Shown here: positions 5,852 to 42,932 of the stretch, one piece after another
Layout: every line of letters begins with the position of its first letter
Numbering within the stretch: position 1 is the stretch's first letter
Assembly: GCF_026262505.1 (NCBI RefSeq)
Contig: NC_067207.1
Coordinates: 12,802,082 to 12,866,081 of the forward strand
Source of the DNA: Trichomonas vaginalis G3
Lineage: Eukaryota > Parabasalia > Trichomonadida > Trichomonadidae
Direction of reading: 5' to 3'
Length of the DNA: 64,000 bases
Translations under genes and position numbers: made by a program
Notes under the pieces: model-generated
Database searches by the model: none
What the model was told of the DNA's origin: nothing
The model's input: only the letters and a program-made list of their open reading frames with translations

Positions 5852-6046
5852 AGTAGTAGGGTATGAAGGGTTTAGTGACTTTTTTTGTAATCGTAAGAAT
5901 TCACACAATATTGACCGATTTTGTAAGTAATTTTCATACAATCGATAAAATAAATGTATGATTCTTACGCTTTTTATTCTTACGTTTTGAAGTAAATCAT
6001 GATTTAAAAATTCATGTCTTACATTTTTGAATAATTTATTTTTTTA
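5852..6046 (+). repeat. left terminal inverted repeat of outer Maverick
   Basis: Bases 5852-6033 match the inverse of 42751-42932 without a difference that I can see. A further 13 bases (6034-6046) match the inverse of 41466-41478, across the 1,270-bp insertion in the right repeat. The original repeat was therefore about 195 bp. Confidence 0.92.
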
Positions 6047-6404
6047 TTTTGTATGAAATGAACGTCAAAACTAACAACGTTAAAAAATTAGGATTCACAA
6101 ACGAGGAAATAAAGGATATATTAGAGGAGGCGGGTTATGAAGTTGATAAATATTATTTAAGAAATTGTAAAAAATTTGCCGAGTTATTAAATGATTTAGA
6201 TTATGATGGAAAAATGAATAAAGATGATGTTATAAATTTCTTATATCCCACATCTGAAGAAGAAAAACCTAAAGAACCTGATGTTTTCCCTGAATATTAT
6301 GAAGAACGGATTAAAGATGATGAATACGATGAAAATGAAAGACTGAAAAAAATAAGAGATGAAATAGATGAAAAAATTAAGGAATTAAGAGAAGTTGAAA
6401 AATA

Positions 6405-7702
6405 TAGGGTGTCCAAAGGTGTGTTTAGCACAAACCTGAATACTGCGAATAGAAATAAACAAGTTACATATATATAAAGTTTATTTAAATATAATCACCA
6501 TTGGATTCAATCACGCGTTCGCAGCGATCGATCCAGGCTTGAAAGACACGCTTTAAATCATCATGAGAAAATTGCTCAAATTGCTCTCTTACAAAATTTT
6601 CAAGATCATCTGGACTCGCGAATTCGCGTCCTTCAGCTCTTTTTTAGCGTGCCGAATAAATAAAAGTCAGAGGGTGCAATATCAGGTGAATAAATTGGGT
6701 TTGGAACAACTTTGACATTGTTTTCCAACAAGTATTCATTACCTTATGACTTTTGTGAACTCTTGAATTATCAAAATGAATTGCAAACTTTTGTTTTTTG
6801 TTGTTTGGATTTCTCAAACTCATCAGAATTGATAATTTGAGTAAGAACATTGTCAATTAGATACTGAGCATTCATCGTATTAGGTTTTGAAGAATATCAA
6901 TTGCGATGATGCCATTCACGCCCCAAAAAACCGACAACATCATCATTGGTGTGTCAATTTTTTTCTTCGGGAATGTTTGCGGATCTTCATCCTTCGGGAT
7001 CCACATGATTTTGGCTTCTGTTGCATATTGAAACAAGACTCATCCCCTGTTACTAAAAAGCGAAACTTCTTGGATTGATACGCACGCAATATAGAGAGGA
7101 GCTCTTTCGAAGATTGGACTCTAGATTTTTTTGAACTGAATTAAGGTTGTGCGGAACCCAACGTGTATACGCTAGTTTGTAGTTCAAATAATTGTGCAGA
7201 TAATAACTGACTGTTGTACGTGGTATCTTTGTCATCTCCTCTATCCTTCTGAGTGATGCTCTTGGGTCTTCATCTAGCGCTTGAAGAATTGCTTTGATTT
7301 TTCTTTGATCCGGCGATTTTTTGTCAATTTTTATGATGGGCGCCTTTTTGGTCATGAAGTGATACATCCTAACATGATACGTCACAGTGGAATAGCTAGG
7401 AGCATCCATACTGAAGCATTTTACCAATGTCTCGTAGATTTTTTACAGTCTTTGCATTTTTTTGCAAGAGCGAGGATGTTTTCTTTATGATTCATTAAAA
7501 AAATGAAAAAAATCCCGCCAAAATTTCCCGCGAAACCGCCTCTTGTCTCAAAATTCATTTTATATCCCGGCATGGCGCCAAAATACAACTTACTCATCAT
7601 ATACATATATTCATATTTTTGATTATATATTTATAATCAGCATATATCTCCTTTAATAGTCTCATATAGAGCGCTGTGCTAAACGCACCTTTGGACACCC
7701 TA
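6405..7702 (-). mobile_element. Tvmar1-type mariner copy 1 (1,298 bp)
   Basis: Ends are TAGGGTGTCCAAAGGTG.. and its inverse, flanked by TA duplications at 6403-6404 and 7703-7704. The terminal repeats are imperfect over about 28 bases. The transposase reads on the minus strand. The element sits inside the reading frame of the outer Maverick gene at 6058-8464. Confidence 0.92.
6486..7606 (-). pseudogene. mariner transposase, copy 1, several frameshifts
   Basis: Compared with copy 3 the frame is broken at several places: a shortened A-run after the codons for KCKDC (near 7440), the A7 run shared by all copies (near 7125-7131), and further indels near 6640-6650 and 6730. The D,D34D catalytic region is present only in pieces. 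The N-terminal helix-turn-helix region (IEEMTKIPRTTVSYYL) is still readable. It cannot encode a full transposase. Confidence 0.88.
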
Positions 7703-8513
7703 TATAATGAAAATGAAGTAGAGGGTTTAATGAATATCCCAGCTTCAGAATCAGAAGTTCAGAAATCTCATGAAGAAAGATATAAAAATTATGTCTCAGA
7801 ATCAACACAAAATTTATTAGATGGTGAAATAGACGAAACACTTTCAGAAGAAGGTACTAAATTTATTCGTAAACATAAGTTACAATTTATTGATAATGAA
7901 GGATACCCCTGTATCCTACTTTCACCACCTTTAGATTCTGAGAAATTCAAAAAAGCTCTTAAAAACGTGACATATGCAACTAATACGATTAAGAAAGAAG
8001 ATCATGATATTTACACAAATTATTATTTAAATAAATGCACAGGTGTTGATAAAGTTTTTGATTTATTAGATAAAATATCAAAAGAAACCATTGGAACATA
8101 TAAAATTTTGTGTGATTGCGGTTTCATTATTGAAGATACCAATAATGTTTCATATGAAAGAACAGCACCGAAGGAAGATGAAGTTGAAAGGTCTATACCA
8201 TTCGTTATTAAGAATATAAAAGATATGAAAACGTATAAGCATTATATTTATTCATTTATTTCAGAAAAAATGGAAGCAACCCATAAAACATCTTCTCATC
8301 ATTTTATAGCTATTCATGCATTCCTTTTCAAAGTTGTGAAATTAAATAAGACAGGAATTAGATTTAATGTATCAGGGTACGCATTCTTGAGTAAATTAAA
8401 ATGTATTCGTCACGTCGCAGATGATAAAAATTTATGTGTTCTTAATTCATTTTATGGGCTTTAAAAAATAAACTTTATTTTTATTTATTTTTTAATTTTT
8501 TATTCTTACATAA

Positions 8514-11463
8514 ATGAACAAAAACGGAACAGCTAAAATGAATGATAATCAAATTAGAGCAGAAGGTAGAAGGTTATTTAAACGCTTCTATAACATTCCT
8601 GATGGTGTTAATCCTAAAACTCGTAGAAGCTATTTAAATGAAGCAATAGATGCATATGAAGGGTTTGACATTTCATCAGAAAGTGAGAGATTAGCGAGAA
8701 TGTTAAATGTTAATATTGATTTCTATTATTGTGATCCTCAACCAGAAGACGTGGACATAAATAAGGTAGACTTTCCATTAGTGGATTCAATAATGATAGA
8801 TCCAGAATTTGAAACAGTAAATATTTTATTAACACAGAGTCCATGTGGAAAACTTCACGCTGACAGAATAACAGACGTTGAAGCACTCACCGGCTATAAA
8901 GTTTGTCCATATTGTAAAGAAGAAGTTTATTCTATCCGTGATGATCCAGAAAGGAAAAACCAAAGAAGATTTTTAAAGCATTGTGAGAAATGTAAAGAAA
9001 ATAATGGAAGATTAATTCAAGACATTCAATTGCAAAAGACCCAGCAACCATATGCACCACATATTACGAAACAGAAGATATATCAGTGGTTATTAGCTCA
9101 CAATTTGCAGAAATATTATAAACCGACAAGATATTATATTACTTTTGACTTTGAAACATTAGAGACTAAAGAAGAATTACAACTTTCTGAGTGTGCAACT
9201 TTGAACGCTTACTTAAAACCATTCATGGTATCATCAACGGTTAAATTAAATGATAAAACATATACGAGGAATTTTTGCTTAACTTCGAGTGATTCTTTTA
9301 TTTCTGATTGGATTGAGTTTTTATTTTCAACCTGTTCATTAGTTGCTAAATCAAACATTGAACAATATGAAGAATTAATGAAGCCGCAAACGGCGGGGCC
9401 TTTGTCCCATACATTAAATGAAAAACAGAAGGAAGCATTTAAAGAACTTCTAGATGAGGAATTCAATAAAGTGAATATCATAGGTTTTAATTCGGGAAAG
9501 TTTGATTTAAATTTAATTCTTCGTGATTTAAACACTGCAAAATGGAAAATAAAATCAATGCTGGGTTCATCTTCTCAATTTAAGCAAATCATTGTAAAGA
9601 AAACAAACGCTCCATATGAATTGAGATTTATTGACATCAGAAATTATATAGCGGGTGGACATTAGACCAATTCACTCAAGATTTCGGAAACAATAAATCA
9701 CGTGTTAAATCCTTTTTCCCTTATCAATTCATCACGTGGGAAAATTACGAAGAAGAATTATATAAAGAGGAACCATTCACGAAAGATTCATTTTATTCAG
9801 CATTAACTCAAGAAACTATATCAGATAGTGATTATCAAATATATCTCAATGATGCTAAAAATTTTAAGAATAAATTAGAATATTTTATTCATTATTGCAA
9901 TAAAGATGTTGAAATTATGATTGACCCAATCGATAAAATTATTGAAGAAACATTTGTTTATAAAATTGATATGCTTCATAATCTTTCTTTATCATCGAAT
10001 GCTTCAATGATTCGTTACGCTTTAGCATATAAAGACTTTAATCCTAATGAAAAATATCCTGAGGAAGAGATAGAATCAAGTTTTGAATTAACGAAAAAGT
10101 ATTGGAAATATAAAATTGAATCATATAAGAAACAAGATGAAAAAGCAGAAGAAGAGATACTAAAAATAATGTTTCAATGGATGATTTTCAATACTATCAC
10201 GATTTAATCCTTTCATCTAAATGCAAAATGTGTGGTAAAGCGTTTACATATGCAAATAAACCAACATTGGATAGAATAGATAATGAAAAACCACATACCA
10301 AAGAAAATTGTCAGTTAATGTGTTGTTATTGCAATGTCGTGAAATCAAATAAAGATGAAGATGTTCAACGTTTAAGAATCAATTTAAGAAATTATGCATT
10401 AAAAAATAATTTACCAATGACTTTAGATTCAGTTGAAGCTTATCACATTCTCCGTAATGGAATTACTGGTGGTTTATCAAATGTTCAACATAGAGTAAAT
10501 CTTAAAGGAATCACGCACATTAATAAACTTGCATATAATCCAGAAACTAAAACTGTATCAAATGAGGACACCACCAACATTATGACTCATTTCGTTGGTG
10601 TTGATTTTAATTCATTATATCCTTCATCATTTTCATCTAATCCTCATGATTTCATTCAATATACTGACCATAAAATGTATATGCCGGGAAGATTGAATGG
10701 TGTTATCATTTGTGATACAGCAACAAAGAAAGCAAAAGCATTGGGAATTATTAGAAAGAAAAATACTTTATTCGTGGCTGAAGTAAAGGGTCACATTGAT
10801 GAAAAATACATTAATGATTACATAAACTTTTTACCGATAATAAGAAACTTAGATATTATCACAGATGAAAAAACAATTGGTAGTTTTATGTATAATTACA
10901 TGAAATTAAACAATCTACCAGTTGACCAGAAACAGAGGAAATTAACTCAGTTAGCATCAACACACAACCAATATCAACCATTTTCTTCTTATTATCTTTG
11001 GTATCTAATAGACAGATTTCATTTTATCATCGATGATATTCAATCAATTTTAACATTTACGAAAAACACTTGTTTTAATGAATTTGCGAACAAATTTATG
11101 AACGAAAGACAAAAGGCTGAATTAGAAGGAAATAAAGGAAAAAGTTTATTTTGCAAGATTTCACTTAATGGATCATATGGTTACGATGCAATGAATACGC
11201 AAAATTACGCAAAGACTAAAATAATGAATGCACAGAAGGCACGCGTTGCATGTATGTCAAATAAGTTTAAAAACATAAGAGAAATAGGTGAGGATACATA
11301 TCAAGTGATGCTTAAAGATAGATTTTATAGATGTGATACATGTTTACAAGAGGCATTCTTCACTTTAGATAACGCAAAATACTGGTATTTAGTTTTCATT
11401 TATGATTTTATGTATAAATGCATGGATGTTAATCGTTTTCATTTCATCAGCTGGATTTGTTGA
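8514..11463 (+). pseudogene. PolB: protein-primed family B DNA polymerase of outer Maverick, frameshifted and truncated, with HNH insert
   Basis: Three frames carry one polymerase. 8514-9665 has Exo I (ITFDFETLE) and Exo II (IIGFNSGKFDLN). A frameshift near 9650 leads into 9660-10207 with Exo III (YCNKDVEIM). A second shift near 10190 leads into 10177-11463 with motif A (VGVDFNSLYPSS) and motif B (KISLNGSYGY). Motif C (DTDS) and the rest of the palm and thumb are missing: the frame stops soon after NRFHFIS. Between Exo III and motif A lies an HNH-nuclease-like block: two CxxC pairs around LDRIDN and HTKENC (about 10217-10350). The first ATG has a TTTATTTTTAT stretch upstream. The gene replicated the element by protein priming; this copy cannot. 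Confidence 0.88.
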
Positions 11464-11518
11464 GTTCATTGATTCGAAATAATATTGATAATTGACATTT
11501 TTTATTACGATTAAAAAT

Positions 11519-13630: not shown

Positions 13631-14458
13631 TTAATCAAATTTAACACTTCCTTTATTTAAATCAACTATTATTTTCCCATGTTCACCTAATTGCTGATAT
13701 TGTGTGTAAAGTTCATTAATGCTCATTGGTAAATTCACTTGATAAAGCATAACGTTCAACTGTTGACGACTAAACCCGCTGAAAATGAAAAGTGTTGATA
13801 GATTTGATTTAATGTTTGTGCTTAATGCTTTGAAATATTGAACAGCCATAAAGAATGAACACTGAATGTGTCGACATTGAGTTAATAACTGATTAAAATA
13901 TGATTTCTCATTTGTTATTAGTTTTGATTTCACCGCATCATCTAGAAAAATGAGTGAATGCAAAAATTCTCTATCAAAATTTGAAATAGAAAGTGTTTCA
14001 AATAATTCATCCCGTTGTTTATCAATAATTTTATCCTCTAATCCTTGCTTCTTGATTGTATTATATAATTCTTTATACATTAAAAAGTTTTTTAAATAAT
14101 CTTCTGCTTCTTCTTGTGATAAATAAATAATTGGAATTTTGATTAAATGCTTTAAAGATTCAAATGTATCATCTGAAGGTGAACCTGAACGGTTGATATA
14201 AATTAACACATGTGAATAGGGGGAAGTGTTAGCAATAATGATAATTTGTTTTAATATCGTTAATGTTTTACCTTTATTCTGTTTACCAATTGCTGCAGTG
14301 ATTGAATTTAAATAACATTCAGAATATGGAATTTTCATTAATTTTTCCTTAGATAGAGCATTTCTATTATCACTCAATGCTTCATTAATCATATCATCTA
14401 TGTATGTATTATATACTCCTGCTAATTCTTCATAAGGGGTGGATGAATTTAAATCCAT
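13631..14458 (-). CDS. A32-like packaging ATPase (FtsK/HerA superfamily) of outer Maverick (275 aa)
   Basis: Walker A is GKQNKGKT (about residues 58-65) and Walker B is SLIFLDDA (about 166-173). A polar stretch near 195-200 (CRHIQCSFFMAVQ) sits where the sensor or glutamine motif is expected. This is the usual Polinton genome-packaging motor, which pumps the linear DNA into the capsid. The frame is intact, unlike PolB and capsid in the same element. It sits 24 bases downstream of the capsid gene. The inner Maverick carries a diverged homologue at 37381-38268. Confidence 0.85.
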   Translation of the reverse strand: MDLNSSTPYEELAGVYNTYIDDMINEALSDNRNALSKEKLMKIPYSECYLNSITAAIGKQNKGKTLTILKQIIIIANTSPYSHVLIYINRSGSPSDDTFESLKHLIKIPIIYLSQEEAEDYLKNFLMYKELYNTIKKQGLEDKIIDKQRDELFETLSISNFDREFLHSLIFLDDAVKSKLITNEKSYFNQLLTQCRHIQCSFFMAVQYFKALSTNIKSNLSTLFIFSGFSRQQLNVMLYQVNLPMSINELYTQYQQLGEHGKIIVDLNKGSVKFD

Positions 14459-14482: not shown

Positions 14483-16123
14483 TTAAACATTTCTATTCAT
14501 CAATATTTCATCATATGAACTTCTATACTGTGGTGGTGTACCTGTTGGATGATATTTCAAACCTTCATCCGGTGTCCATGTCCAATATGTAGTCCTAGTA
14601 AACCAAACCTGAGGAGGATTTGTCACCTTTGAACAGTAAGTGTCATTTTCACCCTGAATGATTGGATAAGCTTTCACTTGTACTGTAACTTGTGAGTTGA
14701 AAGTTTCTAATCCATCAAAGAATATACCCGCTCCATCACGTTGAACTGGAATAGTGCATAAGAATGAAGTTTGGTCTTTCCATGTTCTAGCTAATGGCGT
14801 GCCATCATCTGCATTCAGTGGTCTAGTTAATGAGTCCTCGTATTCTTCTGTGCATTCATACACTCCATCTAAATCAGAAGCTTGAAGCATACGTGTAAAG
14901 AATATGTCGCCCACTGTGGTCATCGCTTGATCGGGGAAGTTTCTGGAATCTATAGTGACCTGAAGACCTCGAAGCATTGGATTTTCTAAAACTGTTCTTT
15001 GCATTGCATTCTTCGGAAATGCTAACACAACATCTGTAACATTATGAAGAGCGTATGAGAAATCTGAGCTAATACCTTCAGGAGTGATGCAACCTCCATT
15101 TAGTGAACGAACGTCAATATGTTGAGCTGGAATCATGAATGGATCTTCCTTACTGAATAAACGTGGTATTGCTTTAACTGATTCTTCAATTAAACCGTAT
15201 CCTGGTGTAATGCATTTATCCTCTAAAACTTCCATCTTTGTGCATGAAATAATAACGTCATCAACTGTTGCGTCAGCAGATGTAGCGGCTAAGCTTGTAA
15301 TTAATTTGGCAGGAAGTCCAATTTGTTGGAATTTGCGATCATATTTATAAACATGATTCATAATCTTTTCATAATTTTCATCAGTTATCTTTTCATAAAC
15401 GTAATTTTTGTAAATCAGCAACTCTTAACGGGTCAACCTGACAAAATACTAAAGTATCCCTGAAAACATAATATTTAAGAATGATATCACCAAATGATTT
15501 AGGATAATCATCGAACGCCTGAAATGCTAACAAATCATTTACCGGAATAATCATATCAAAAGTGACATCAACTTCTTCATTTGCTTTCTTGAAAACTTCT
15601 GAAGGGTCAATATATTTACCACATACTGAGTTATCATATTTTTGAACATTATTATATAACGAATGAACAAACTTTTTAACTTTCCTTTCTGATTTTGGTT
15701 TATATGTTGCAAATGCGAAAGATTCATGGGCGCAATCCATCTGAAGATAACCGGCATCACCTCTTTCGTTTCTACTTCTAATTGTTTAAAGCTTTGATTT
15801 GATGATTTGTAACCAACGAATAAACGCATGCATTTAAAAGCGGCATCACATGTGAAAGCTTTATTTGAAACTAGAGTTGCTTTAACTTTGCGTTTAATAT
15901 ATGTGTCACCTAATTGGTTCACATCATGAGCCGGATTTGTAATTCTTAAATGAGTTTGTTTATCATCAAAATATGGAGCATCAGAGTCATAGCATGAACT
16001 TTCAAGTTCTCTATAATATCTTCTACCGTCATTCTTTGCGAATATTTCATTTATCTTTTTGAATGAATGAAACACATTTCCATTAATCGGTTTAGTGTTT
16101 GGCACCAAATAGTTAGTCGTCAT
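14483..16123 (-). pseudogene. major capsid protein of outer Maverick, two frameshifts
   Basis: Three overlapping minus-strand frames make one protein of about 545 residues: 16123 to about 15740 (starts MTTNYLVPNT), about 15757 to about 15420, and about 15420 to 14483. The last frame has no ATG at its start. The changes of frame occur near 15740-15760 and 15420. The length and position upstream of the ATPase match the inner Maverick capsid protein (524 aa). The C-terminal part is beta-rich with Pro- and Thr-rich loops, as in double-jelly-roll capsid proteins. The call rests on position and length plus these features, not on a signature motif. Confidence 0.68.
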
Positions 16124-18020: not shown

Positions 18021-18067
18021 TATTAATTAAAAAAATATATTTTATCACTTATATTCTAATTTTTATT

Positions 18068-19543: not shown

Positions 19544-21118
19544 TTATTCCTCACTGTCGTCCGTAGCTAAGTTATAGTCATCTAATCTTATTATGGGGAT
19601 TCCATTAGCACGCACCTGAATGGCAAAGCAACAATCCCTCATAAATCCAATAAGTGGCTTTGGTACATTTTCAGTTGCTAGTTCAATAGGTCCTTTAACA
19701 GACAATTTGTATGTTATTGGAGCAGTAGATGTTTGACCTTGCTGGAAGCAAAAGTCCACTTCTGTTGGAAAACCACATAAGAAATGTGTGTTGTCATAAC
19801 TATCCCATTTATGTTCCACACTACCATCATCCACCAATGACCTCATAACATCTTCATTAAATCCTATCATATCATTGTTTGTATTGCAAGCGTTCGCAAC
19901 CATTTCATAAAATACAGGTCCATATGATTTTTCGGGTTCTGCAGGCATATTTCCATAAGCTCCCATGGAAAGCTGAAGATATTTAAACTTAGGGTTCTCA
20001 AAATTAACATAATAGTTGTCTTTCTTTCTAAATAGTGCCCAAATACTTTTAACATTAATAGGCGTATAAGCTGCTGTAAATGTTGCACTTGAACTATCTG
20101 TATTCTTTGAGAATGAACCGTCCATAGGAATCCAATCCATAACTTTAACAGGAAAACATAAAGCCTCGTTTGTATAATGTTCTACAAGTTCTGTATAAAT
20201 GTTAGGGTCTAAAGAGAATGACTTTGGATGAATGAAACATTCATTAAAATCCATCTTTGTTCGAAATAGTTGCTGGGTTACAGTTGTAATAGTAACTGTT
20301 CCACTAGCTTCTACTGCCTTCGTTATCATAGTGAATGGTTCATTCCATGGAACAAATTTATTTGTCGGTGGATTTGAATCTGAAGCAAATGCAACTTTAA
20401 GAGTTGGATTGAAAGCAATGATATCATTTACAGATATAGATGTGCATTGTAAGGCGTCGCTACTGAACTTTACTTTAAGCTGAATGTTTCCTGCAAAAGC
20501 TGGAATAAATCGAATAGCTTCTAATGGAAGGAATCTTCTAACAGGAATTCTTAAACGAAGCTTAAAATCAAATGATTTTCCTGCTGTAATTGGACCACTA
20601 ACAATTTGTCCTGTTCTGCATGTTCCCGAATGACTCCATACATCTTCATGTCGAGTCTTTGAGAAAACATCTACTTTCTTTATTTGTTCGGTAGTTTGTG
20701 AGTTTGAAGTTATATATGCTTCTTCTCTTGCGTTGTCTTGAGAATATACGATACGACCATTTGCAAGGATTTGATATCCAGCAACTGCATAGAAAGCGTC
20801 ATCGAAACCAATCCAAAATCCTGGTGGGTTTGTTTTATTGGAACCTGAACCAATTTCTTTATCTACAATAAATTGACCTTCCATTTTATACGTAATGAAT
20901 GTATTGTAAAGGTCCAACATATTTTCACCAGGAGGTGAGAGATTGAATGTTACCCATGTGTTATCTTTAGCAGTTCCAGGTTGTGATGGAATCTTTGCGT
21001 CAGAATATTTTCTATTAGTGTCACCAATTTGAACTGCATTGTCTATGATATCGAAATATGAGCGAATCTGATGAATATGCTCTGCTGGAGTAAATTCGTT
21101 TAACTGTTCGTTCTGCAT
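19544..21118 (-). CDS. major capsid protein of inner Maverick (524 aa)
   Basis: Intact frame from ATG 21116-21118. The protein is beta-rich with many Pro/Gly/Asn loops and has no membrane segment. Features that fit a double-jelly-roll Polinton capsid protein are its length and a segment RRFLPLEAIRFIPAFAGN at about 196-213 between two beta-rich halves. The position next to a Pro-rich membrane protein also fits. The outer Maverick has a broken counterpart at 14483-16123. It would assemble into the icosahedral shell. The assignment is by length, composition and context; a structure prediction would settle it. Confidence 0.7.
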   Translation of the reverse strand: MQNEQLNEFTPAEHIHQIRSYFDIIDNAVQIGDTNRKYSDAKIPSQPGTAKDNTWVTFNLSPPGENMLDLYNTFITYKMEGQFIVDKEIGSGSNKTNPPGFWIGFDDAFYAVAGYQILANGRIVYSQDNAREEAYITSNSQTTEQIKKVDVFSKTRHEDVWSHSGTCRTGQIVSGPITAGKSFDFKLRLRIPVRRFLPLEAIRFIPAFAGNIQLKVKFSSDALQCTSISVNDIIAFNPTLKVAFASDSNPPTNKFVPWNEPFTMITKAVEASGTVTITTVTQQLFRTKMDFNECFIHPKSFSLDPNIYTELVEHYTNEALCFPVKVMDWIPMDGSFSKNTDSSSATFTAAYTPINVKSIWALFRKKDNYYVNFENPKFKYLQLSMGAYGNMPAEPEKSYGPVFYEMVANACNTNNDMIGFNEDVMRSLVDDGSVEHKWDSYDNTHFLCGFPTEVDFCFQQGQTSTAPITYKLSVKGPIELATENVPKPLIGFMRDCCFAIQVRANGIPIIRLDDYNLATDDSEE

Positions 21119-27582: not shown

Positions 27583-27710
27583 TCATTCTTCCTCTTTGAA
27601 GTTATCGAAATACTCTGTTATTTTTTCCTTTCAGTAGGTAAGTCTTCTTTGAATGTAAGTATTGTACAACCTTTGATATTATAGTGTGTTTGAGGAAGTA
27701 TTTTTGACAT
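27583..27710 (-). pseudogene. small gene with apparent frameshift
   Basis: The ATG at 27708-27710 begins MSKILPQTHYN.. and stops after about 30 codons at an A-rich run. The other frame continues ITEYFDNFKEEE to a stop at 27583. One base difference in the A-run would join them. It lies 3 bases downstream of the KilA-N remnant. Confidence 0.35.
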
Positions 27711-27713
27711 TTT

Positions 27714-28466: not shown

Positions 28467-28573
28467 TACTGTCTTTACATACAAAATAAAAAAATAAATA
28501 AAAATAAAATTAGCGTTATTTTTTCTGAGATAAACACTATTTCTTCACAACATTAAATTTTATCCTGTATGAA

Positions 28574-31150: not shown

Positions 31151-32236
31151 TTAGAAGAATTTTCTTATTCTTTCTGGCATATTTTTGTCTTTCCAGTACT
31201 CCCGCTCTAATGGTCCCAGATGTGTTGGCTTCGACTCTCTCAAGTTCTTAGATGGTATAACATCTTCAACGCCTCCTTCATATCTTACTTTATAAGTGTC
31301 ATCGTTTGTGTTATAGCCAAGTATTTCAATAACCACTCCTCGCTTTGCTTCGTCAATGGTTTCAGCAAGTTTGCCATTACTACTTTCGACTAATTTATGT
31401 CGAGGATAAAACGCAATAGAGTCGTCGGCAGCTTTTATAAGATATCCATTACCTTGCGTAGAGTCTACGATATAATAATTTCGACTTAACCTTAAACGTT
31501 TCTTTGTCAACGGTTTGTCGTCAAGAACTACACGAACTTTTGTTCCAGGAATGAGGGTAAATTGTGTTGAATTTCTGATATTTTGTGTTTGGCTTCGTTT
31601 CTTTTGTATATACTTTTCTTCTTGTTGTTGTGTCATTGAATTTGGTGTATGTCCTGTTGTAGAATGTGTTGAGGAATTATATACTTCGAGAAAATGTTTC
31701 ATTGTTTCTTCGGTAAAGTCTCGCTCTTGGTTTAAATCTCTGAGAGTCCTTATGAAGCGGTTTATGATGCCGAGTATGTTATGGTTATGGTCTTCAGTAG
31801 TGTAGTGAGTTATGTTATGCTTAATGAGAAATTCTGTGATTTCATTGCTGAGGTATGCACTGTCTTGGTCTGATGTTAAAGTACTTGGGTTATGTTCTGC
31901 TACAAACTTTTGTAAAACTCTTAACACTTCACGAGTTCCTTTATTTTTCATTGGATATGCATATGCTTTACGAGTGTTAACATTTATGAAGATGAGGAAT
32001 GGTTTATGTCCTCCTTTTCTGCTTTGAATGAGAGTGTCAAATTGGTATGCGTCAGGAGTGTTGGAGTAAATTGGTAAAAAGTAGTCGTAAGGGTTTATTT
32101 TTGTTTGATGTACAACATTTTTGTCAAAGAACCTTTTCACTTCAGCTCTGTTAGTAAATCCCCGACTCTTTGCAGCTTCATTGAACTTCTTAAATGACCT
32201 CCATGGATGTTGTTCGAATACTTCTTTCAAGCTCAT
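31151..32236 (-). CDS. retroviral-type (rve) integrase of inner Maverick, with Asn at the catalytic Glu position (361 aa)
   Basis: The core domain has AYQFDTLIQ (D67), TSDQDSAYLS (D123) and NILGIINRFIRTL, where N159 falls exactly 36 residues after D123, the D,D35E position of the catalytic Glu. The C-terminus has a chromo/SH3-like stretch (DTYKVRYEGGVEDVIPS, about 314-330). The enzyme inserts linear Maverick DNA and makes the 5-6 bp duplication. ATG at 32234-32236, 19 bases from the stop of the fibre gene. Whether this protein is active with Asn is unknown; the codon AAC is one base from GAC (Asp). Confidence 0.9.
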   Translation of the reverse strand: MSLKEVFEQHPWRSFKKFNEAAKSRGFTNRAEVKRFFDKNVVHQTKINPYDYFLPIYSNTPDAYQFDTLIQSRKGGHKPFLIFINVNTRKAYAYPMKNKGTREVLRVLQKFVAEHNPSTLTSDQDSAYLSNEITEFLIKHNITHYTTEDHNHNILGIINRFIRTLRDLNQERDFTEETMKHFLEVYNSSTHSTTGHTPNSMTQQQEEKYIQKKRSQTQNIRNSTQFTLIPGTKVRVVLDDKPLTKKRLRLSRNYYIVDSTQGNGYLIKAADDSIAFYPRHKLVESSNGKLAETIDEAKRGVVIEILGYNTNDDTYKVRYEGGVEDVIPSKNLRESKPTHLGPLEREYWKDKNMPERIRKFF

Positions 32237-32255: not shown

Positions 32256-35200
32256 TTAACCAACTCGTATCCAAGCGTGCATTGTTATATAAGGAGGCAT
32301 ATAATCTTTTCCATTACCTGCTGGGTCTGTAATACCAGCTACAACATGTGTATGATTTCCTGCGGTTCCACAGAAAATACCTGTGCTTGAATCTACTGGG
32401 TCAGTTGAAATATCATATCTATGCATTCCCTGTCTATCCGAACCCGCTGCAAGATTTGTATAACCTCTTTTTGTTATTGAATGTGAATGGTTTCCTTCCA
32501 CAGATGTTCTTCCACTGAACCTATGCATATGTGAAGGAAGGTTTTCAATACCTATTTTCTTTGAACCTCCCATCTTCATTGACTGCGTATTAGTGTAGAA
32601 TGGAAAACTGTCAACTATTTCATACCATCTACCACCAAATAAAGTGTTTGGATTTATTGGATTCATAGACGTATAAACAGCTCCTATAGGATATATTAAA
32701 TCATATATGCTCATAACTCTATAAACATATTCTAAAGAACTTATGTCATTAAATACCATTTGGAATGTATCTCCCGGATGAAATGTTGCATTTGTTCCAC
32801 TTTTATAATGTAATGTTAGTTCAATAGAATTATCCAAGAAAAATTCAAAAGTATCTGGTTGAAGACCTCTAACAAATTCAAATGGAGTTGCTGGTTCACC
32901 ATTTATAATTTCTGTTGTAAATGTCATTGTATCTGGTTTCGAAAATTTCTTTGTTAGTTCTGCATCCACATAAGTTTTATCTGCTTTCTTATCTAACATT
33001 GTTGGTAGTTCATGTGCTTCAAAGTTTCTGGCATGACTTTCAATGTTCCTGCAACTCTTATCTAAACTGTTAAGAGTATCTTTTACGCTTGTACTTGGAT
33101 TTTCTAATGGTGCACTTGAACCAAGGTCAAAGTTCAATATTATGTCGTCTGCTCTAACAGTAGTGAAGGATTTATGTGTATGGTTCTTGTCAGCTTTACT
33201 GTCTAATGTAGCTTGAAGTTCATTTATATCGGAGATGTTGTGTTTATGAGATTTCAAAACTTTGTTCGTTGCTTCGAGTTCAACTTTGTCAGCTTTACTT
33301 TTAATAGCATCTTCAAACGTTATTTTTGCCTTAACTCTCAAAGTAAATCTTGGTTCAACTAATACACCGTTAACATTGAAAGTAGAGGCATAAATTTCAC
33401 CGGTATAACCAAATGCTTCTGGTGCTTTAGCTACATCATACTGTACAGTACAGCTTATGTCATAACCTTTAGCACGAATGTATTTATATCTTCTTTCATT
33501 AACATTTTTTGTCTTCGCTTCATCACTTCGTGTTAAATATCCATGGTAGTCCGTTATAATCTGTTCGTCTGAAGTTATATAATGAACATGGTTCTTGTCC
33601 GCTTTACTATTTAATGTAGCTTGAAGTTCATTTATATCGGAGATATTGTGTTTATGAGATTTCAAAACTTTGTTCATTGCGTCAAGTTCATTTTTGTCCG
33701 CTTTACTATTTAATGTAGCTTGAAGTTCATTTATATCGGAGATATTGTGTTTATGTTCTTTATCTGCTTTTTCGGCTAATTTCTCTTCTATCTCATTTAT
33801 TTCAAGTTCATGCCTACCACCACCTCCCGAAGAAGTATTTTTCTTCAGCTCTTGAAGAACGTCCACTTCACCATCTTTGGTGTCAATAATGAGACTTTGT
33901 GTTAAAACCTTTCCTGTCTTAATGGATGTTTGTAAAACTTCTTCTTCACCGTGTTCGGGGTCATGGTCGTCATCATATCTTGTGAAATCAGAGATGTTGT
34001 CATACATTAAACATATCTGTCTCAAAAGTTCTGCTATTTGAAACTGGAACGAAAGATATACAGAACTTTCATCATCTCCTAAAGTCAAGTCTGCTTTCTT
34101 AAGTATTTCTTGAATGTATGCAATGAGAACAGAGTACCTTGGAAAATATTCGAACAATATTTCATTAGCTGTTGGTTTTGGTGGTTCTTCTGGAGTTTCT
34201 GTTGTTTCAGTTCCTTCTGTAGGTTCTGTTGGAGTTTCTGCATCTCTTGACTTCAATGCTCTTGCTCTCAAAGACCTAAATGTTAGAGCACCGGGTTTTA
34301 CAAAGGACTTTATAAATGCTTTAATAGTTCCTGGTAAGTTATTGTTAGCATTAAGTAAGTTCCTTATGCTTCCATCATGTACGTCCATAGCACTATGTAA
34401 AAAATCTATACTTTTCTTGTAGTCAGCAATAGACTGACTGTGATTTTTTAAAGATTTGTCAATACCTTTAAGCCAATCTTCATGCATGTCTGATACTGAG
34501 CCAAGAATATCATTTGCTTCCTTTAGTGTATTTTGTGCTTGTCGTAAAGTATCCAATCCCGTACGTGCATTGTTTGCTATACGTCTTACAGTATCTATTT
34601 GACTCCTTGTTTCTTGCATCCAACCAGATAAAGTTTTAATAGTATCCGAACCATTTGAAATGAAGTTCAAAGCATTTTTAACGTCATTTAAAGCTTCTTC
34701 ACCAAGTACTGCCCATATCTTTCCGATTTGGTATTGAAGAACTCCATATGAAGCAGCTGTTAAACCAGTATTTATAAGGTCCCATATCCATGATTTAGCA
34801 GTTTTTCCATCCTTTCCATCCTTTCCATCCAAACCGTTTTCGCCTTGAGGTCCTTGTATTCCTTGTATTCCTTGTATTCCTTGTGGTCCTTGAGGTCCGG
34901 TGTCACCCTTCTCTCCTTTCAGTTCATCTTTATGTTCGTTATAATATTCTAATGTCATAAGGTGTACATCATTACTGCTACCAGCAACGCCAAGAATTTG
35001 TTTCTCATTCATGACTAAATTCTTTAGGCATTTAATGTTGTCGTCAAATCGAAAGCTCTTTAACAATTCAATGAGAACATTTAATACTTTCACTAATGAG
35101 GCATCTACTGTAGAATTTATATATTGCACCGTTCCATCATTTATGATAGGAACCTTGCTTGTTGTAATGAATGGGTCATAAGTGTTAAAAGTATCGAAAT

Positions 35201-35333
35201 CAATGACTTTTTTAGTTTTTCCATCGTCAATGACTAAATCATTGCCTTCAATGGTTAAAGTTGAGTTTTCGTTTACTAGTTCATGTGCTCTTCTTGCTTC
35301 ATTTGTTTCATACGCATATGCAGCAATAGTCAT
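32256..35333 (-). CDS. phage-like fibre with collagen-like stalk and tail-collar C-terminus (1025 aa)
   Basis: Order: N-terminal region (1-138); at least twelve Gly-X-Y triplets (140-177, cores GEKGDTGPQG and GKDGKDG); a helical stalk (about 180-350); a low-complexity Thr/Pro/Glu link (about 365-395); then four copies of a module with core HKHNISDINELQATL between about 530 and 720. The C-terminus has YPIGAVYTS, LFGGRWYEI, MGGSKKIGIENLPSHMH and NGKDYMPPYITMHAWIR, the order seen in phage tail-collar/receptor-binding tips. Trimeric attachment fibres of this type are known from phages. In a Maverick it suggests a capsid spike. ATG at 35331-35333, divergent from 35351 by only 17 bases. Confidence 0.85.
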   Translation of the reverse strand: MTIAAYAYETNEARRAHELVNENSTLTIEGNDLVIDDGKTKKVIDFDTFNTYDPFITTSKVPIINDGTVQYINSTVDASLVKVLNVLIELLKSFRFDDNIKCLKNLVMNEKQILGVAGSSNDVHLMTLEYYNEHKDELKGEKGDTGPQGPQGIQGIQGIQGPQGENGLDGKDGKDGKTAKSWIWDLINTGLTAASYGVLQYQIGKIWAVLGEEALNDVKNALNFISNGSDTIKTLSGWMQETRSQIDTVRRIANNARTGLDTLRQAQNTLKEANDILGSVSDMHEDWLKGIDKSLKNHSQSIADYKKSIDFLHSAMDVHDGSIRNLLNANNNLPGTIKAFIKSFVKPGALTFRSLRARALKSRDAETPTEPTEGTETTETPEEPPKPTANEILFEYFPRYSVLIAYIQEILKKADLTLGDDESSVYLSFQFQIAELLRQICLMYDNISDFTRYDDDHDPEHGEEEVLQTSIKTGKVLTQSLIIDTKDGEVDVLQELKKNTSSGGGGRHELEINEIEEKLAEKADKEHKHNISDINELQATLNSKADKNELDAMNKVLKSHKHNISDINELQATLNSKADKNHVHYITSDEQIITDYHGYLTRSDEAKTKNVNERRYKYIRAKGYDISCTVQYDVAKAPEAFGYTGEIYASTFNVNGVLVEPRFTLRVKAKITFEDAIKSKADKVELEATNKVLKSHKHNISDINELQATLDSKADKNHTHKSFTTVRADDIILNFDLGSSAPLENPSTSVKDTLNSLDKSCRNIESHARNFEAHELPTMLDKKADKTYVDAELTKKFSKPDTMTFTTEIINGEPATPFEFVRGLQPDTFEFFLDNSIELTLHYKSGTNATFHPGDTFQMVFNDISSLEYVYRVMSIYDLIYPIGAVYTSMNPINPNTLFGGRWYEIVDSFPFYTNTQSMKMGGSKKIGIENLPSHMHRFSGRTSVEGNHSHSITKRGYTNLAAGSDRQGMHRYDISTDPVDSSTGIFCGTAGNHTHVVAGITDPAGNGKDYMPPYITMHAWIRVG

Positions 35334-37380: not shown

Positions 37381-38268
37381 TTAAAACAATGTTGGTCGTT
37401 CCCATGGAATATTTTTGACTTTAATGGTATTAGTCATGATATGAATCTCAAGGTATGAACGAGGAGAGATGAGAGACTTATATGCTTCCCAAATTTCTTC
37501 AAAAGGTAATGTTATACCTGACTGTTTCCAAATGAGTTCAATATCATAGCGTGAGAAACCTTGAAAGATAACGAAGTCAGTTATGAGACGTTTTATGTTT
37601 AAAGCTAAAAACCTCCATGTTTGCATAAGTATTGCTACAGTTAAATGGTAATGTCTGACTTTAGTAATGATATTAGCTAATGGTGAGTCTGGTTTTGACA
37701 CTAAACCTTTACCAGCGAAGTCGTCGCAAACGAGCAGAGTGTTTGAAGGATATTTTTTGAAGGGGTATTTTGAAAGTTTTGATAGAATGTAGTTTGTCAG
37801 TCGTTTCATATCGTAAACTCCTGAGTACTGACGTAAGTGGTGTTTGTCAATAATTCTTTCCATCTCCTCAGAAGTCTTTTGCATTCCTGACTGTATAAAT
37901 TCAACGATGGCATAATATTTCCTCTTACGTCGAATGTAACGTTGAAGAAATTCAATGAGTTCACTGTCTGGAACTTTAACGACAGAGGCTTGAACTTTTG
38001 ACATAAATGTTTTCGCTGTTGAATCCATAGAGTCTGAAGTTGCTGATATAATGATTTGGTCATAGTAAGAGTCGTTTCCTAAACGCTCTGTTATGAGTAT
38101 ATGACGAATTAAATTAAATGTCTTACCTGAACCCATCTTTCCACAATAGAAATAAACGCCATTTGAACAGAACTCATAGTCCTTACTGAAAGGAAGAATG
38201 AGAGAAGAGTTAAGTTTGTCTGTAGTTTCATTCATGTCTTCATCTACGTCATGTATTAAATGCTTCAT
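37381..38268 (-). CDS. A32-like packaging ATPase of inner Maverick (295 aa)
   Basis: Walker A GKMGSGKT (about 42-49) sits just after the strand GVYFYC. Walker B is LLVCDDFAG (about 178-186). A polar segment LTVAILMQTWR (about 210) occupies the sensor position. Intact from ATG 38266-38268. It is the DNA-packaging motor of the inner element, homologous to 13631-14458. It is divergent from 38285 with only 16 bases between start codons. Confidence 0.88.
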   Translation of the reverse strand: MKHLIHDVDEDMNETTDKLNSSLILPFSKDYEFCSNGVYFYCGKMGSGKTFNLIRHILITERLGNDSYYDQIIISATSDSMDSTAKTFMSKVQASVVKVPDSELIEFLQRYIRRKRKYYAIVEFIQSGMQKTSEEMERIIDKHHLRQYSGVYDMKRLTNYILSKLSKYPFKKYPSNTLLVCDDFAGKGLVSKPDSPLANIITKVRHYHLTVAILMQTWRFLALNIKRLITDFVIFQGFSRYDIELIWKQSGITLPFEEIWEAYKSLISPRSYLEIHIMTNTIKVKNIPWERPTLF

Positions 38269-39389: not shown

Positions 39390-39902
39390 ATGGTAGCTTG
39401 GGCAGCTTTAGGCGCAATGGGAACAAAAGCATTAGCATTTGGAGCAAAAGCACTTGGAGCTTATGACGCAGTAAATAAAATGAGTGGAGGAAGGGTTTCG
39501 AAGACATTAGATGCAAATAAAGGGAAGATTGGAGGCTGGGTTGCAAAGAAGTTAAGATTAAATAAAATAGGGCTCATAAATAAAGCATCCAATTTGGTTG
39601 CGACTGAGTCAGAAAATGCTTTAGGAAAGGACGATGAGTTTGCAAAACACGCAAAAGACTTTAATGACCAGATGAAAGGTGAAACAATGCATTTAAATAG
39701 AGTCGATGGAACTCTTCCTCCATCAGTAGTTCTTCCGTATGGTCCCTATGGAATGTATGGAAACCCTTACGAAAGACCATTTAACCCATTGACTGGTGGA
39801 AGTAACTGGTATCATTACGGCCGAAGAAGAAAGACAGTCAAGTTGGAGACAGACGTGAAGAAAGCAACTAAAAAGAAACCAAGGAAGAGAGTTATAAAGT
39901 AA
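39390..39902 (+). CDS. Maverick protein with hydrophobic N-terminus and basic tail (170 aa)
   Basis: ATG at 39390 follows a TAA without spacer. An Ala/Gly-rich hydrophobic N-terminus (AALGAMGTKALAFGAKALG), an amphipathic basic region (GGWVAKKLRLNKIG), a Pro/Tyr/Gly-rich loop (YGPYGMYGNPYERPF) and a basic C-terminus (KKPRKR). This layout fits a minor core or membrane-acting capsid protein like adenovirus pVI or pX in composition; no homology is shown. Confidence 0.55.
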   Translation: MVAWAALGAMGTKALAFGAKALGAYDAVNKMSGGRVSKTLDANKGKIGGWVAKKLRLNKIGLINKASNLVATESENALGKDDEFAKHAKDFNDQMKGETMHLNRVDGTLPPSVVLPYGPYGMYGNPYERPFNPLTGGSNWYHYGRRRKTVKLETDVKKATKKKPRKRVIK

Positions 39903-39919: not shown

Positions 39920-40593
39920 TAGGGTGAAAAACAGGTGAAAAAAGAGGTGAGATCTCACCGCTTCACCTAAATTTATTTTTGCGCTATGTTTTCATACGTG
40001 TGAGGGTGGTGATATCATTAATTTTTAAGTTTATTTTTTATTTTATTTTTAAGTTTATTTTTATATAAATGACGAAAACTATTGAGATAACAAACTACAA
40101 CGGTCATGAGTTCAAGAATTTGTTCTTCGTTCCTCGTGAAAATACATTCTATCAGATACGAGGGAGAAAGGGTAAAGTTAGTTTGAGCGTTTATGACTAC
40201 AAGCATAATGGAAAGTTTATACAAGCATACGATACAAACGGTAAACGTGTTTCATTAGCTTTGTCAAAACTTACAGGTATAAACTATGACAGTGATTTTG
40301 ACCTATATGAAGAAGAAAGTGAGTCAGAAGATTATGAGCTGTTATGTGAAGCACAGCAATGGGAAGCGCTGCAATACTTTTGTAAGTGAGAACGTTTATT
40401 TTTACAGTAGTGAAGTCGTTTGTGAAAACATTAGTGAGGTGAAGTGGTTGGTGGCTTTGTAAATATTTAAGGTTAAGTTAGTGTTGTCGTTGTGTTGTAA
40501 AATATATGTTAACGGTTTCGTAAAGTGTCAAATTCACATATCAGGGGTAAGGAGACGCGCAGTGCCTCAGTACCCATGATATGTATACTAACT
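39920..40593 (-). repeat. right terminal inverted repeat of inner Maverick (674 bp)
   Basis: Inverse of 18068-18742. It contains a GGTGAGATCTCACC palindrome (39946-39959) and the second copy of the 106-aa gene. Confidence 0.93.
40069..40389 (+). CDS. terminal-repeat-encoded protein, right copy (106 aa)
   Basis: Protein identical to that at 18272-18592. It reads outward toward the right end from an ATG preceded by TTTATTTTTATATAA. Its promoter and whole gene are inside the repeat, so both copies should be expressed alike. Confidence 0.75.
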   Translation: MTKTIEITNYNGHEFKNLFFVPRENTFYQIRGRKGKVSLSVYDYKHNGKFIQAYDTNGKRVSLALSKLTGINYDSDFDLYEEESESEDYELLCEAQQWEALQYFCK

Positions 40594-40607
40594 TTATTTA
40601 ATGATAA

Positions 40608-40980: not shown

Positions 40981-41454
40981 TTAAAGTTCAATGTTGAACT
41001 CATCAAATTCTTCTTCATCATTACCATTACCTTTAGCGAGTTTATTTACTCTTTCAACTTTATCTTTTGATAGTCTTTCGTTTAATTTTTTCTGAAGTTT
41101 TTCGTTACCAAGTTCTAAAATTTTACATGGATGATATTTAAACCCGTTAAATTCTTTTTCCTCAGTTTTAATCATTAATCTACAAAGAACTTTAGTGAGG
41201 TGGTTTTGTTGTTTAAACCATTTATCCTTAATATTTGTTATAAATTCAATATCCGGAATTAATTCCCAAATTTTTGAATTTTCGATTAATTTACCATCAA
41301 ATGCAAAAGCAATAGGTTTAATATTAAACTTACCTTTATAAAATAAACTTTGTATGCAATCATCAAAATAAACGTCTACTTGTTTAACCTGGGTGAGAAT
41401 TGGTGAAAGTTTATCCATTAATTGATTCACAGTCACGAATTTTGATTCACTCAT
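40981..41454 (-). CDS. conserved Maverick protein, outer copy (157 aa)
   Basis: Homologue of 26821-27294 (see the KFNIKPIAFAFDGK, ITNIKDKWF and KYHPCKILEL segments), same length, with an acidic end (NDEEEFDEF). The frame is intact although the element is otherwise damaged. In the outer element it sits at the far right end, whereas its homologue in the inner element is beside PolB. Confidence 0.65.
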   Translation of the reverse strand: MSESKFVTVNQLMDKLSPILTQVKQVDVYFDDCIQSLFYKGKFNIKPIAFAFDGKLIENSKIWELIPDIEFITNIKDKWFKQQNHLTKVLCRLMIKTEEKEFNGFKYHPCKILELGNEKLQKKLNERLSKDKVERVNKLAKGNGNDEEEFDEFNIEL

Positions 41455-41480
41455 TTCTTACGAATTAAAAAAATAAATTA

Positions 41481-42750
41481 CCCAGATTTTCCTTACTTTT
41501 ACCACCCCTCTAAAGCTGGGGACACCGCCTATCGTTGGGAGTAGCTATTAAATAGAACCACCAAGGGTATTTTTCGAACTGTTGGTGTAGTGTAGTGGAA
41601 ACATCTGACATAATGATTCGTTATGCCAAGGTTTGATTCCCATTTAGCTAATTTTTTTCTTTTTTGGATCATGAATTTTTTTTTGGGTCACTATAAGATT
41701 TGTTTCATGTTCTAAATCTGCTGCATATGTAATCTATTTTTATTTACCTATTTTTTAAAAATCTATTGGATTGCCAAATTTGAATATATTTAAAATCATA
41801 AAAATCCAAAAAAACTATAAATATATGTTTTATACATAGTGCCGATACTCAAATATCAGATTACTTAGATCCATGAATAATATCCGAATTTTTTTTCTTA
41901 AAATTAAACTTCAAAACTTCTTGCAATCTTATTCTTAATCAATTGTAAATTTTTAAAACCATTTTTTAAAATAATTTTGCGTAAATTTTATTCTCATGTT
42001 GTTTTAATCGAAAATTGATACATTTTCAAAAAAATAATATTGACTTATGAAATTCATTTTTAAGGTGAAATAGTATTGTTTTTATTAAAGTATATGAATA
42101 ATATATAAAAAATTAATGAATAATATAAGCAGATTTTTAGTTTACAAAACAAATATGAGCAATGCAATTTCAAACTTTTGCTGGCAATTTCGATATTGCT
42201 CAAGTTTGTAGTATTTGTGATACCTATAACATCGGCTTAATCAAAATTCGATTTTTCTTATGAGTTATTGAGAAAATTTGATTGCAATGAGAAGGATTTC
42301 GACGTTTTTGATAAACTAAGAGCTGAGCTTTAGGGGTTCAGTTCATTTATGGCTGTAGTTTGATGCGTAGATCTCTTTTTTATTGTAAATTCTTTCAGCA
42401 TGGAGATCGAGAATGAATCTTTTGAGAACTTTATGAGTTTTTACACCCGTAAAGAGGTCCTTCGAGGAAAGATAGTCCAGACTACATGAAGATGTGGGTT
42501 AACCAAAAAAATCCGATGGTTTCCCCATATTCATGTAGATCTTCGAAAAAATGAGCACCAAAAAAGCCAAAAAAATAGGCTTTTTATTGGATTTGTACAC
42601 TAGATCAATAATCTATTTAGGATCTGACACTCTTTTTAGCCAGAGATATGAGGTCCTTTCTAGGAAAACGATCTATTCATCCATAAAAAAATGAATTATC
42701 GTTTTCCCCAGAAATTACATGGGGAGTGGTAAAAGTAAGGAAAATCTGGG
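41481..42750. mobile_element. 1,270-bp noncoding element with 25-bp inverted ends and TA duplication
   Basis: Both ends read CCCAGATTTTCCTTACTTTT then ACCAC as inverted repeats, flanked by TA at 41479-41480 and 42751-42752. Removing the element and one TA restores the terminal repeat of the outer Maverick, which continues at 41466-41478. It has no open frame over 60 codons that I would support, and contains a tRNA-like segment. The TA duplication fits a non-autonomous Tc1/mariner-type element, although its ends are unlike Tvmar1. Confidence 0.85.
41581..41655 (+). other. tRNA-like segment (A and B box) in the 1,270-bp element
   Basis: A box TAGTGTAGTGG followed by a possible 4-bp D stem, a hairpin CATAA-TGATTCG-TTATG, and a B box GGTTTGATTCC. 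The acceptor stem does not pair and the T stem is poor, so it is not a working tRNA as read. It could be a pol III promoter or a tRNA-derived part. Confidence 0.4.
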
Positions 42751-42932
42751 TATTCAAAAATGTAAGACATGAATTTTTAAATCATGATTTACTTCAAAAC
42801 GTAAGAATAAAAAGCGTAAGAATCATACATTTATTTTATCGATTGTATGAAAATTACTTACAAAATCGGTCAATATTGTGTGAATTCTTACGATTACAAA
42901 AAAAGTCACTAAACCCTTCATACCCTACTACT
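42751..42932 (-). repeat. right terminal inverted repeat of outer Maverick (182 bp, outer part)
   Basis: Inverse of 5852-6033 with no difference that I found. Its inner 13 bases were separated by the 1,270-bp element and now lie at 41466-41478. Confidence 0.92.

What the first reader, a model, noticed from the sequence alone, without database searches (positions are those of the whole stretch)
5852..42932. Maverick inside a Maverick, both with intact target duplications
The outer element (GATTGT duplication, 182-bp identical ends) holds a complete 22.5-kb inner element (TTATT duplication, 675/674-bp ends). They are different families: the terminal repeats, PolB and capsid differ strongly. This gives a relative order of events and two gene sets to compare in one locus.
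Basis: seen in the sequence. Interest (0 to 1): 0.8.

Follow-up and report, generated by a model that had tools for sequence, protein, structure and literature searches.

The report
Nested Mavericks in Trichomonas vaginalis
In the genome of the parasite Trichomonas vaginalis, which is packed with giant virus-like transposons, one such element jumped into an older, already decaying one; the structure is real and readable, but it is an ordinary event in this genome.

Summary
The nesting is real. The outer element (5852-42932) has identical 182-bp ends and a 6-bp duplication GATTGT. The inner element (18068-40593) has ends identical over 667 bp and a 5-bp duplication TTATT. Sister copies in the same genome show the unoccupied sites of the inner element, both mariners and a fourth transposon. 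The genome is Trichomonas vaginalis G3.

First, the outer element is not a second complete gene set: about 10.7 kb is its own DNA, and a deletion whose scar occurs only once in the genome removed the end of PolB, an integrase-like gene and a fibre gene; its PolB and capsid-like frames are broken. Second, nesting recurs here: ends of the two families number 706 and 1,089, a second nested pair was read in full and a third is supported by its ends. Nested Mavericks in this genome are in print (PMC7845603).

Least expected were two palindromic Mavericks with the polymerase half at both ends; in the one read in full I found no capsid or ATPase gene, and it has a normal 6-bp duplication.

The parts
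5846..5851 (.). outer target-site duplication, left copy GATTGT
5852..6033 (+). outer terminal inverted repeat, left; 13 further bases match the right arm beyond the transposon that sits in it
   Evidence: 182/182 complementary to 42751-42932
6407..7700 (-). Tvmar1 mariner no. 1 inside outer element, flanked by TA; unoccupied site in sister copies
8514..11460 (+). outer PolB in three overlapping open pieces (8514-9662, 9635-10204, 10141-11460), with an HNH/endonuclease VII-like domain, cut off before motif C
11447..11472 (.). deletion scar with about 24 bp of filler; two relatives carry about 4.8 kb and 9.8 kb here (PolB C-terminus, integrase-like gene, fibre gene in the first)
   Evidence: one hit in the genome at up to 3 mismatches
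13631..14458 (-). outer packaging ATPase (Pox_A32-like), open frame
   Evidence: just under the curated cut-off; 22% identical to the inner ATPase, E 7e-17
14483..16123 (-). outer capsid-like gene, broken into pieces; one 546-aa frame in relative L040
16721..18018 (+). Tvmar1 mariner no. 2 inside outer element, flanked by TA; unoccupied site in sister copies
18063..18067 (.). inner target-site duplication, left copy TTATT
   Evidence: unoccupied site in L035 and L040
18068..18734 (+). inner terminal inverted repeat, left (667 bp perfect)
19544..21118 (-). inner capsid-like protein, 524 aa, open frame
22974..26729 (-). inner PolB, 1251 aa, open frame
   Evidence: DNA_pol_B_2 E 2.9e-38
26821..27294 (+). 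inner DUF4108-like protein, open frame
   Evidence: E 4.5e-5, just under the curated cut-off
27585..28544 (-). inner KilA-N gene (limits approximate), broken here; one 323-aa frame in sister copy L046
29930..30892 (-). inner DUF3839 protein, open frame
   Evidence: E 7.5e-154
31151..32236 (-). inner integrase (rve), 361 aa, open frame
   Evidence: E 5.9e-11; 98% over 74% of its length to a named T. vaginalis G3 integrase
32256..35333 (-). inner fibre-like protein with collagen, phage tail repeats and Gp10_C domain
37381..38268 (-). inner packaging ATPase (Pox_A32-like)
   Evidence: E 3e-7
39390..39902 (+). inner DUF4107 protein
   Evidence: E 3.6e-71
39927..40593 (-). inner terminal inverted repeat, right
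40594..40598 (.). inner target-site duplication, right copy TTATT
40981..41454 (-). outer DUF4108 protein, open frame
   Evidence: E 1.9e-61
41481..42750 (.). high-copy transposon, 1,270 bp, with CCCAGATTTTCC ends and TA target duplication, inside the right outer repeat; unoccupied site in L040
42751..42932 (-). outer terminal inverted repeat, right (part outside the transposon)
42933..42938 (.). outer target-site duplication, right copy GATTGT

Best explanation
This is a Maverick (Polinton) of one Trichomonas vaginalis family that integrated first with a 6-bp target duplication and was later hit by a Maverick of a second family, which integrated with a 5-bp duplication. Two Tvmar1 mariners and one more TA-targeting transposon also landed in the outer copy, and a deletion removed its PolB end, integrase-like gene and fibre gene. 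Shown here: the borders, the duplications, the unoccupied sites in sister copies, a deletion scar that occurs once in the genome, and recurrence of the same arrangement elsewhere in the genome. Inferred: each Maverick was copied as linear DNA, as expected of protein-primed PolB elements (recalled), and inserted by a retroviral-type integrase. Nesting then follows from how much of this genome is Maverick DNA. Not resolved: whether the deletion came before or after the integration of the outer element, and the order of the mariners and the fourth transposon relative to the inner element.
For: Borders and duplications. Unoccupied sites of the inner element and mariner 2 in L035 and L040, of mariner 1 in L034, L037 and L039, of the right-hand transposon in L040. 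Family-typical duplication length: outer family 12 of 14 pairs with an exact 6-bp match, plus the window and C1:4842836 and 4 of 4 long pairs tested; inner family 5 bp in 3 of 3 pairs (window included), in the nested copy, and in 3 of 5 pairs. A second nested pair, C1:4842836-4881948, has the inner-family element in the outer capsid-like gene with duplication TTAGT, and the window's own outer copy shows that site unoccupied. A third, C3:7433147-7498806 around C3:7451336-7473107, has both duplications intact. The deletion scar and the left outer/inner junction each occur once in the genome at up to 3 mismatches. Host genes (NOP9-like, Bystin, EF-hand on one side, kinases on the other) flank the outer element.
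Against: No reads could be examined, so assembly error at single bases is not excluded. PMC10120064 (passages) warns that frame breaks in such repeats can be assembly artefacts, so the frame breaks in the outer PolB and capsid-like genes and in the inner KilA-N gene are less certain than the deletion. Some pairs lack the family-typical duplication: of 14 outer pairs 1 has none and 1 has only TTTTT; of 5 inner pairs, 1 has none and 1 matches over 6 bp. The third nested case was read only at its four ends, and about 26 kb of its 65.7 kb is accounted for by neither element. The outer integrase-like gene of relatives had no Pfam match at E 0.01 and rests on an alignment at 24% identity.
Confidence: 0.95

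Rival explanations
1. Mis-assembly: two unrelated Mavericks were joined by the assembler, and the nested picture is false.
For: Highly repetitive genome with many near-identical copies; PMC10120064 reports assembly artefacts in such regions (passages).
Against: Both duplications are exact; the flanks of the inner element, with TTATT counted once, match the unoccupied site of sister copies; other nested copies with intact duplications exist. A mis-join would not be expected to produce these.
Confidence: 0.02
2. The composite moved as one unit: the inner element entered the outer one while it was a free molecule, and the pair integrated together.
For: The outer ends are identical over 182 bp, as right after integration.
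Against: The left outer/inner junction occurs once in the genome. The nested pairs use different outer copies, and the two that were read use different sites. 37 kb would also be long: 10 of the 12 facing pairs of outer ends outside the window span 15.9-21.3 kb, the others being the 39-kb nested copy and one of 5.5 kb. One such event that never spread further cannot be excluded.
Confidence: 0.04
3. The inner-family integrase prefers Maverick DNA or a feature of it, so nesting is targeted rather than random.
For: Two inner-in-outer pairs read and a third supported by its ends.
Against: With about 353 inner-family and 545 outer-family copies estimated from end counts, roughly 19 inner-in-outer insertions are expected from uniform insertion alone (a rough figure that treats every end as half of a complete copy); Mavericks make up about 73 Mb of this genome (PMC7845603, passage). 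The number seen does not call for targeting, but I did not do a full census.
Confidence: 0.08

Closest known systems
Maverick/Polinton elements of Trichomonas vaginalis (PMC7845603; PMC10120064; passages read)
   Same: Large elements with terminal inverted repeats, PolB, retroviral-type integrase, KilA-N and structural-protein genes; very high copy number; nested, end-to-end fused and fragmentary copies noted in PMC7845603.
   Different: Nothing in kind. This locus adds one fully bordered example with unoccupied sites. I did not have Repbase and give no published family name for either element.
Tvmar1 mariner of T. vaginalis
   Same: Three copies in the window carry both published end primers without mismatch; about 1.3 kb with TA on both sides.
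   Different: The primer sites are 1,252-1,257 bp apart here, while PMC7845603 speaks of a 1,304-bp product (passage).
Polinton-like viruses with nested retrotransposons in cryptophytes (PMC12220804, passages read)
   Same: Integrated virus-like elements interrupted by later mobile elements, with 5-6 bp duplications.
   Different: There the inserts described in the passages I read are retrotransposon-like elements of about 4-9.5 kb, not another Maverick.

Membership tests
Maverick/Polinton (inner element) | long terminal inverted repeats and 5-6 bp target duplication | tested here: met
   667 bp perfect, TTATT
Maverick/Polinton (inner element) | family B DNA polymerase | tested here: met
   1251 aa, DNA_pol_B_2 E 2.9e-38
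Maverick/Polinton (inner element) | retroviral-type integrase | tested here: met
   rve E 5.9e-11; the third catalytic residue is Asn at the canonical Glu position
Maverick/Polinton (inner element) | packaging ATPase | tested here: met
   Pox_A32 E 3e-7, over the cut-off
Maverick/Polinton (inner element) | double jelly-roll major capsid protein | tested here: inconclusive
   524-aa protein, homologous by profile to the outer-family 546-aa protein (99.9%); no Pfam match, so not DUF4106; no PDB sequence match; structure job failed or was not accepted
Maverick/Polinton (inner element) | cysteine protease | not tested
   no protease match among the inner proteins scanned, but not every open frame was scanned and no dedicated search was made
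Maverick/Polinton (outer element) | terminal inverted repeats and target duplication | tested here: met
   182 bp perfect, GATTGT
Maverick/Polinton (outer element) | family B DNA polymerase | tested here: met
   present as broken pieces that end before motif C; DNA_pol_B_2 E 1e-5, just under the cut-off, and a phage polymerase family E 4.5e-9
Maverick/Polinton (outer element) | retroviral-type integrase | tested here: not met
   none found in the outer pieces scanned; the integrase-like gene of relative L039 lies in the stretch deleted here. The family appears to have it, this copy does not
Maverick/Polinton (outer element) | packaging ATPase | tested here: met
   Pox_A32 E 9.6e-5, just under the curated cut-off; 22% identical to the inner ATPase, E 7e-17
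Maverick/Polinton (outer element) | double jelly-roll major capsid protein | tested here: inconclusive
   broken here; 546-aa frame in L040 has relatives in Streblomastix strix and matches the inner family by profile; no Pfam match that names a capsid; fold not obtained
Tvmar1 mariner | published end primers in an element of about 1.3 kb | tested here: met
   three copies, 0 mismatches, element length 1,294-1,299 bp between the TA flanks

The most novel reading that the evidence does not exclude
T. vaginalis carries a recurrent palindromic form of the outer Maverick family: two inverted copies of the TIR-PolB-integrase half around a primase-helicase gene, without capsid or ATPase genes in the copy read in full, inserted with a normal 6-bp duplication. 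Such elements would be genomic fossils of recombination or fold-back on free linear replicating Maverick DNA, and would make the long-assumed extrachromosomal linear intermediate testable.
Probability: 0.3. Interest if true: 0.6.

Novelty: already known. Interest (0 to 1): 0.22.

Why it matters
As a nested pair it matters little beyond giving a clean relative order of events at one locus and showing that duplication length (mostly 5 bp in one family, mostly 6 bp in the other) tells two Maverick families apart. If the palindromic copies met on the way are a real recurrent form, they would give physical evidence on how Mavericks replicate before they integrate, which I understand to rest mostly on analogy with adenoviruses (recalled, not searched).

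Tried and rejected
First guess rejected: I took the genome for a nematode from its size and chromosome number; the integrase search named Trichomonas vaginalis G3.

Rejected: that the frame breaks in the outer PolB are introns or a feature of the family. Relative L039 keeps one open 1076-residue frame across the same stretch (though it lacks the N-terminal part in that frame), and other relatives break at other places.

Rejected: that the primase-helicase gene marks a separate palindromic family. Its search listed 93 matches, the query copy included, the others at 96-98%, and one lies in a non-palindromic copy (C3:24482801).

Not settled: the capsid assignment. PMC10120064 (passages) names DUF4106 as the T. 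vaginalis major capsid protein. DUF4106 is abundant in this genome, but the capsid-like proteins of the window and of L040 did not match it or any Pfam family that names a capsid, and no listed hit of the capped search lies in the window. The assignment rests on relatives in Streblomastix strix, an organism that PMC10120064 places in the same capsid group, and on the profile match between the two families. No fold was obtained.

Literature: ten searches. Passages only were read of PMC7845603, PMC10120064, PMC6431247, PMC12220804, PMC12721341, PMC11071308, PMC12695648 and PMC3671162; all other papers were seen as listings. Pritham 2007 and Kapitonov and Jurka 2006 are known to me only as cited there and from recall.

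Full report
What was checked. The four junctions of the finding are in the sequence where stated. The outer ends (5852-6033 and 42751-42932) are complementary over 182 of 182 bases and lie between two copies of GATTGT. The inner ends (18068-18734 and 39927-40593) are complementary over 667 of 667 bases and lie between two copies of TTATT. The outer repeat stops at 182 bases because a later 1,270-bp transposon (41481-42750) sits inside its right arm; beyond that insert the match goes on for 13 bases. The chance that given flanks match by accident is about 0.0004 for 6 bp and 0.0016 for 5 bp at this base composition.

Which genome. The window lies in an assembly of 180.85 Mb in 86 contigs. The inner integrase is 98% identical, over 74% of its length, to a protein named Trichomonas vaginalis G3. 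Named T. vaginalis G3 proteins lie on contigs of 27,737,965, 34,657,175 and 40,211,917 bases, the lengths of contigs C3, C5 and C4 here. Three mariner copies in the window carry both published Tvmar1 end primers without mismatch (primers from a passage of PMC7845603). Host genes lie on both sides of the outer element.

Unoccupied sites. I fetched outer-family copies at C3:24482801, C3:23502282, C5:31141723 and C1:4842836 and an inner-family sister at C1:24114523, piecewise. Copies L035 and L040 read straight through the place where the inner element and mariner 2 sit in the window, with TTATT once. L034, L037 and L039 read through the mariner 1 site. L040 reads through the site of the fourth insert at 41481-42750, a high-copy transposon with a TA duplication. 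So four later insertions into one outer copy are shown directly.

The outer copy is damaged. After taking out the inner element, two mariners and the fourth insert, about 10.7 kb is its own DNA (10,675 bp with rounded borders; finer borders). Relatives carry about 4.8 kb (C5:31141723) or 9.8 kb (C3:24482801, which also holds a primase-helicase gene and a mariner) where the window has a scar of about 25 bp at 11447-11472. In relative L039 that stretch encodes PolB motif C and C-terminus, a 500-aa integrase-like protein and a 421-aa fibre-like protein. The scar occurs once in the genome at up to 3 mismatches. The PolB and capsid-like genes of the window's outer copy are also in pieces, where some relatives have longer frames. 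PMC10120064 (passages) cautions that frame breaks in such repeats can be assembly artefacts; the deletion is less open to that doubt.

The inner copy is nearly intact. PolB, integrase, ATPase, capsid-like, fibre, DUF3839, DUF4107 and DUF4108-like proteins have open frames. The KilA-N gene is in pieces here and in one 323-aa frame in the sister copy. The six aligned blocks against that sister are 96.7-99.8% identical, 4 of 6 above 99.5%, so this family moved recently.

Two families. The outer PolB piece compared, one of three, has no match to the inner PolB (E 0.39); the ATPases are 22% identical (E 7e-17), the DUF4108 proteins 21% (E 3e-6), and the capsid-like piece compared 26% over 115 residues (E 3e-6). 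Profiles of the two capsid-like families align over 497 columns with 99.9% probability and 19% identity, so they are remote relatives. Duplication length separates the families. Outer family: of 17 pairs, 3 were dropped because an end motif was not found or the ends did not face each other; of the remaining 14, 12 have an exact 6-bp match, 1 has only TTTTT and 1 has none; the window, C1:4842836 and 4 of 4 long pairs tested also have 6 bp. Inner family: 3 of 3 pairs, the window included, have 5 bp, as has the nested C1 copy; of 5 pairs, 3 have 5 bp, 1 matches over 6 and 1 has none.

Nesting is common here. Ends of the inner family count 706 (344 + 362; control 1) and of the outer family 1,089 (538 + 551; control 0). 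If each end is half a complete copy, uniform insertion would give about 19 inner-in-outer cases; this is rough and probably high. A second nested pair was read in full: C1:4842836-4881948, with the inner-family element inside the outer capsid-like gene, duplication TTAGT, and the window's own outer copy showing the unoccupied site. A third, C3:7433147-7498806 around C3:7451336-7473107, is supported by its four ends and both duplications; about 26 kb of it is still unexplained. Of 7 outer pairs longer than 26 kb in the list, I tested 4; all 4 have an exact 6-bp duplication, which fits single elements enlarged by later inserts, though the inserts were not read. The left outer/inner junction of the window occurs once in the genome, so there is no sign that this composite has spread as a unit.

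What is known. PMC7845603 (passages) gives about 5,000 Mavericks and 73 Mb in this genome and states that manual inspection found full-length, end-to-end fused, nested and fragmentary elements. The finding is therefore a clean example of a known thing.

Met on the way. The outer-family element C3:23502282-23520423 is a palindrome: arms of 7.7 kb, 99.2% identical, each with TIR, PolB and integrase-like gene, around a primase-helicase gene, with no match to the capsid and ATPase stretch of the outer family and a 6-bp duplication TTCACT. It was 1 of the 14 pairs. A second palindrome, C3:16040062-16058247, was picked because its primase gene is placed alike; two 120-base probes from its two halves both match the same PolB-side stretch of the outer family in inverted sense. 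Its duplication and the rest of it were not read, so two separate elements side by side are not excluded. In a non-palindromic copy, stretches on both sides of the primase gene match the same repeat at 80-85% in opposite sense, which offers a route by recombination between free molecules. I saw no report of such palindromes in the listings, but the 'end-to-end fusion' of PMC7845603 may be the same thing.

Noticed in passing
G000:C3:23502282-23520423 (L037, L038) and C3:16040062-16058247 (L086, L087): Palindromic outer-family Mavericks with the TIR-PolB half at both ends. The first, read in full, has 7.7-kb arms, a central primase-helicase gene and a 6-bp duplication; the second rests on two 120-base probes.
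   Followed up: partly
L037:8645-10000 continuing into L038:1-954: Primase-helicase gene (DUF5906 E 1.5e-21 in its second part); 93 listed genome matches, the query copy included, the others at 96-98%; repeats in opposite sense on both sides in a non-palindromic copy. Possibly the Mav1.6 primase of PMC7845603.
   Followed up: partly
window 31151-32236: The inner integrase has Asn at the canonical third catalytic position (DD35N), as have 16 of 16 homologues aligned with it; the outer relative has Asp there. The catalytic motif is recalled.
   Followed up: partly
window 10141-10450 and L039:2562-5789: An HNH/endonuclease VII-like domain lies inside the outer-family PolB between the third exonuclease motif and palm motif A. 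PMC11071308 mentions homing endonuclease insertions in polinton PolBs (passage); motif names are recalled.
   Followed up: partly
window 32256-35333 and L039:8055-9317: Fibre-like proteins with Gp10_C tails in both Maverick families, phage tail repeats and collagen in the inner one.
   Followed up: no
window 57837-59135: A third Tvmar1 copy cuts into the end of an ankyrin-repeat gene (56699-57907).
   Followed up: no
window 41481-42750: Transposon of 1,270 bp with TA duplication and no long open frame; 39 further matches at 98-99% in a capped list. Family name unknown to me.
   Followed up: no
G000:C1:8170354-8191543 (L060, L061): An outer-family pair with ends only 91% alike and no duplication: perhaps ends of two different elements.
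   Followed up: no
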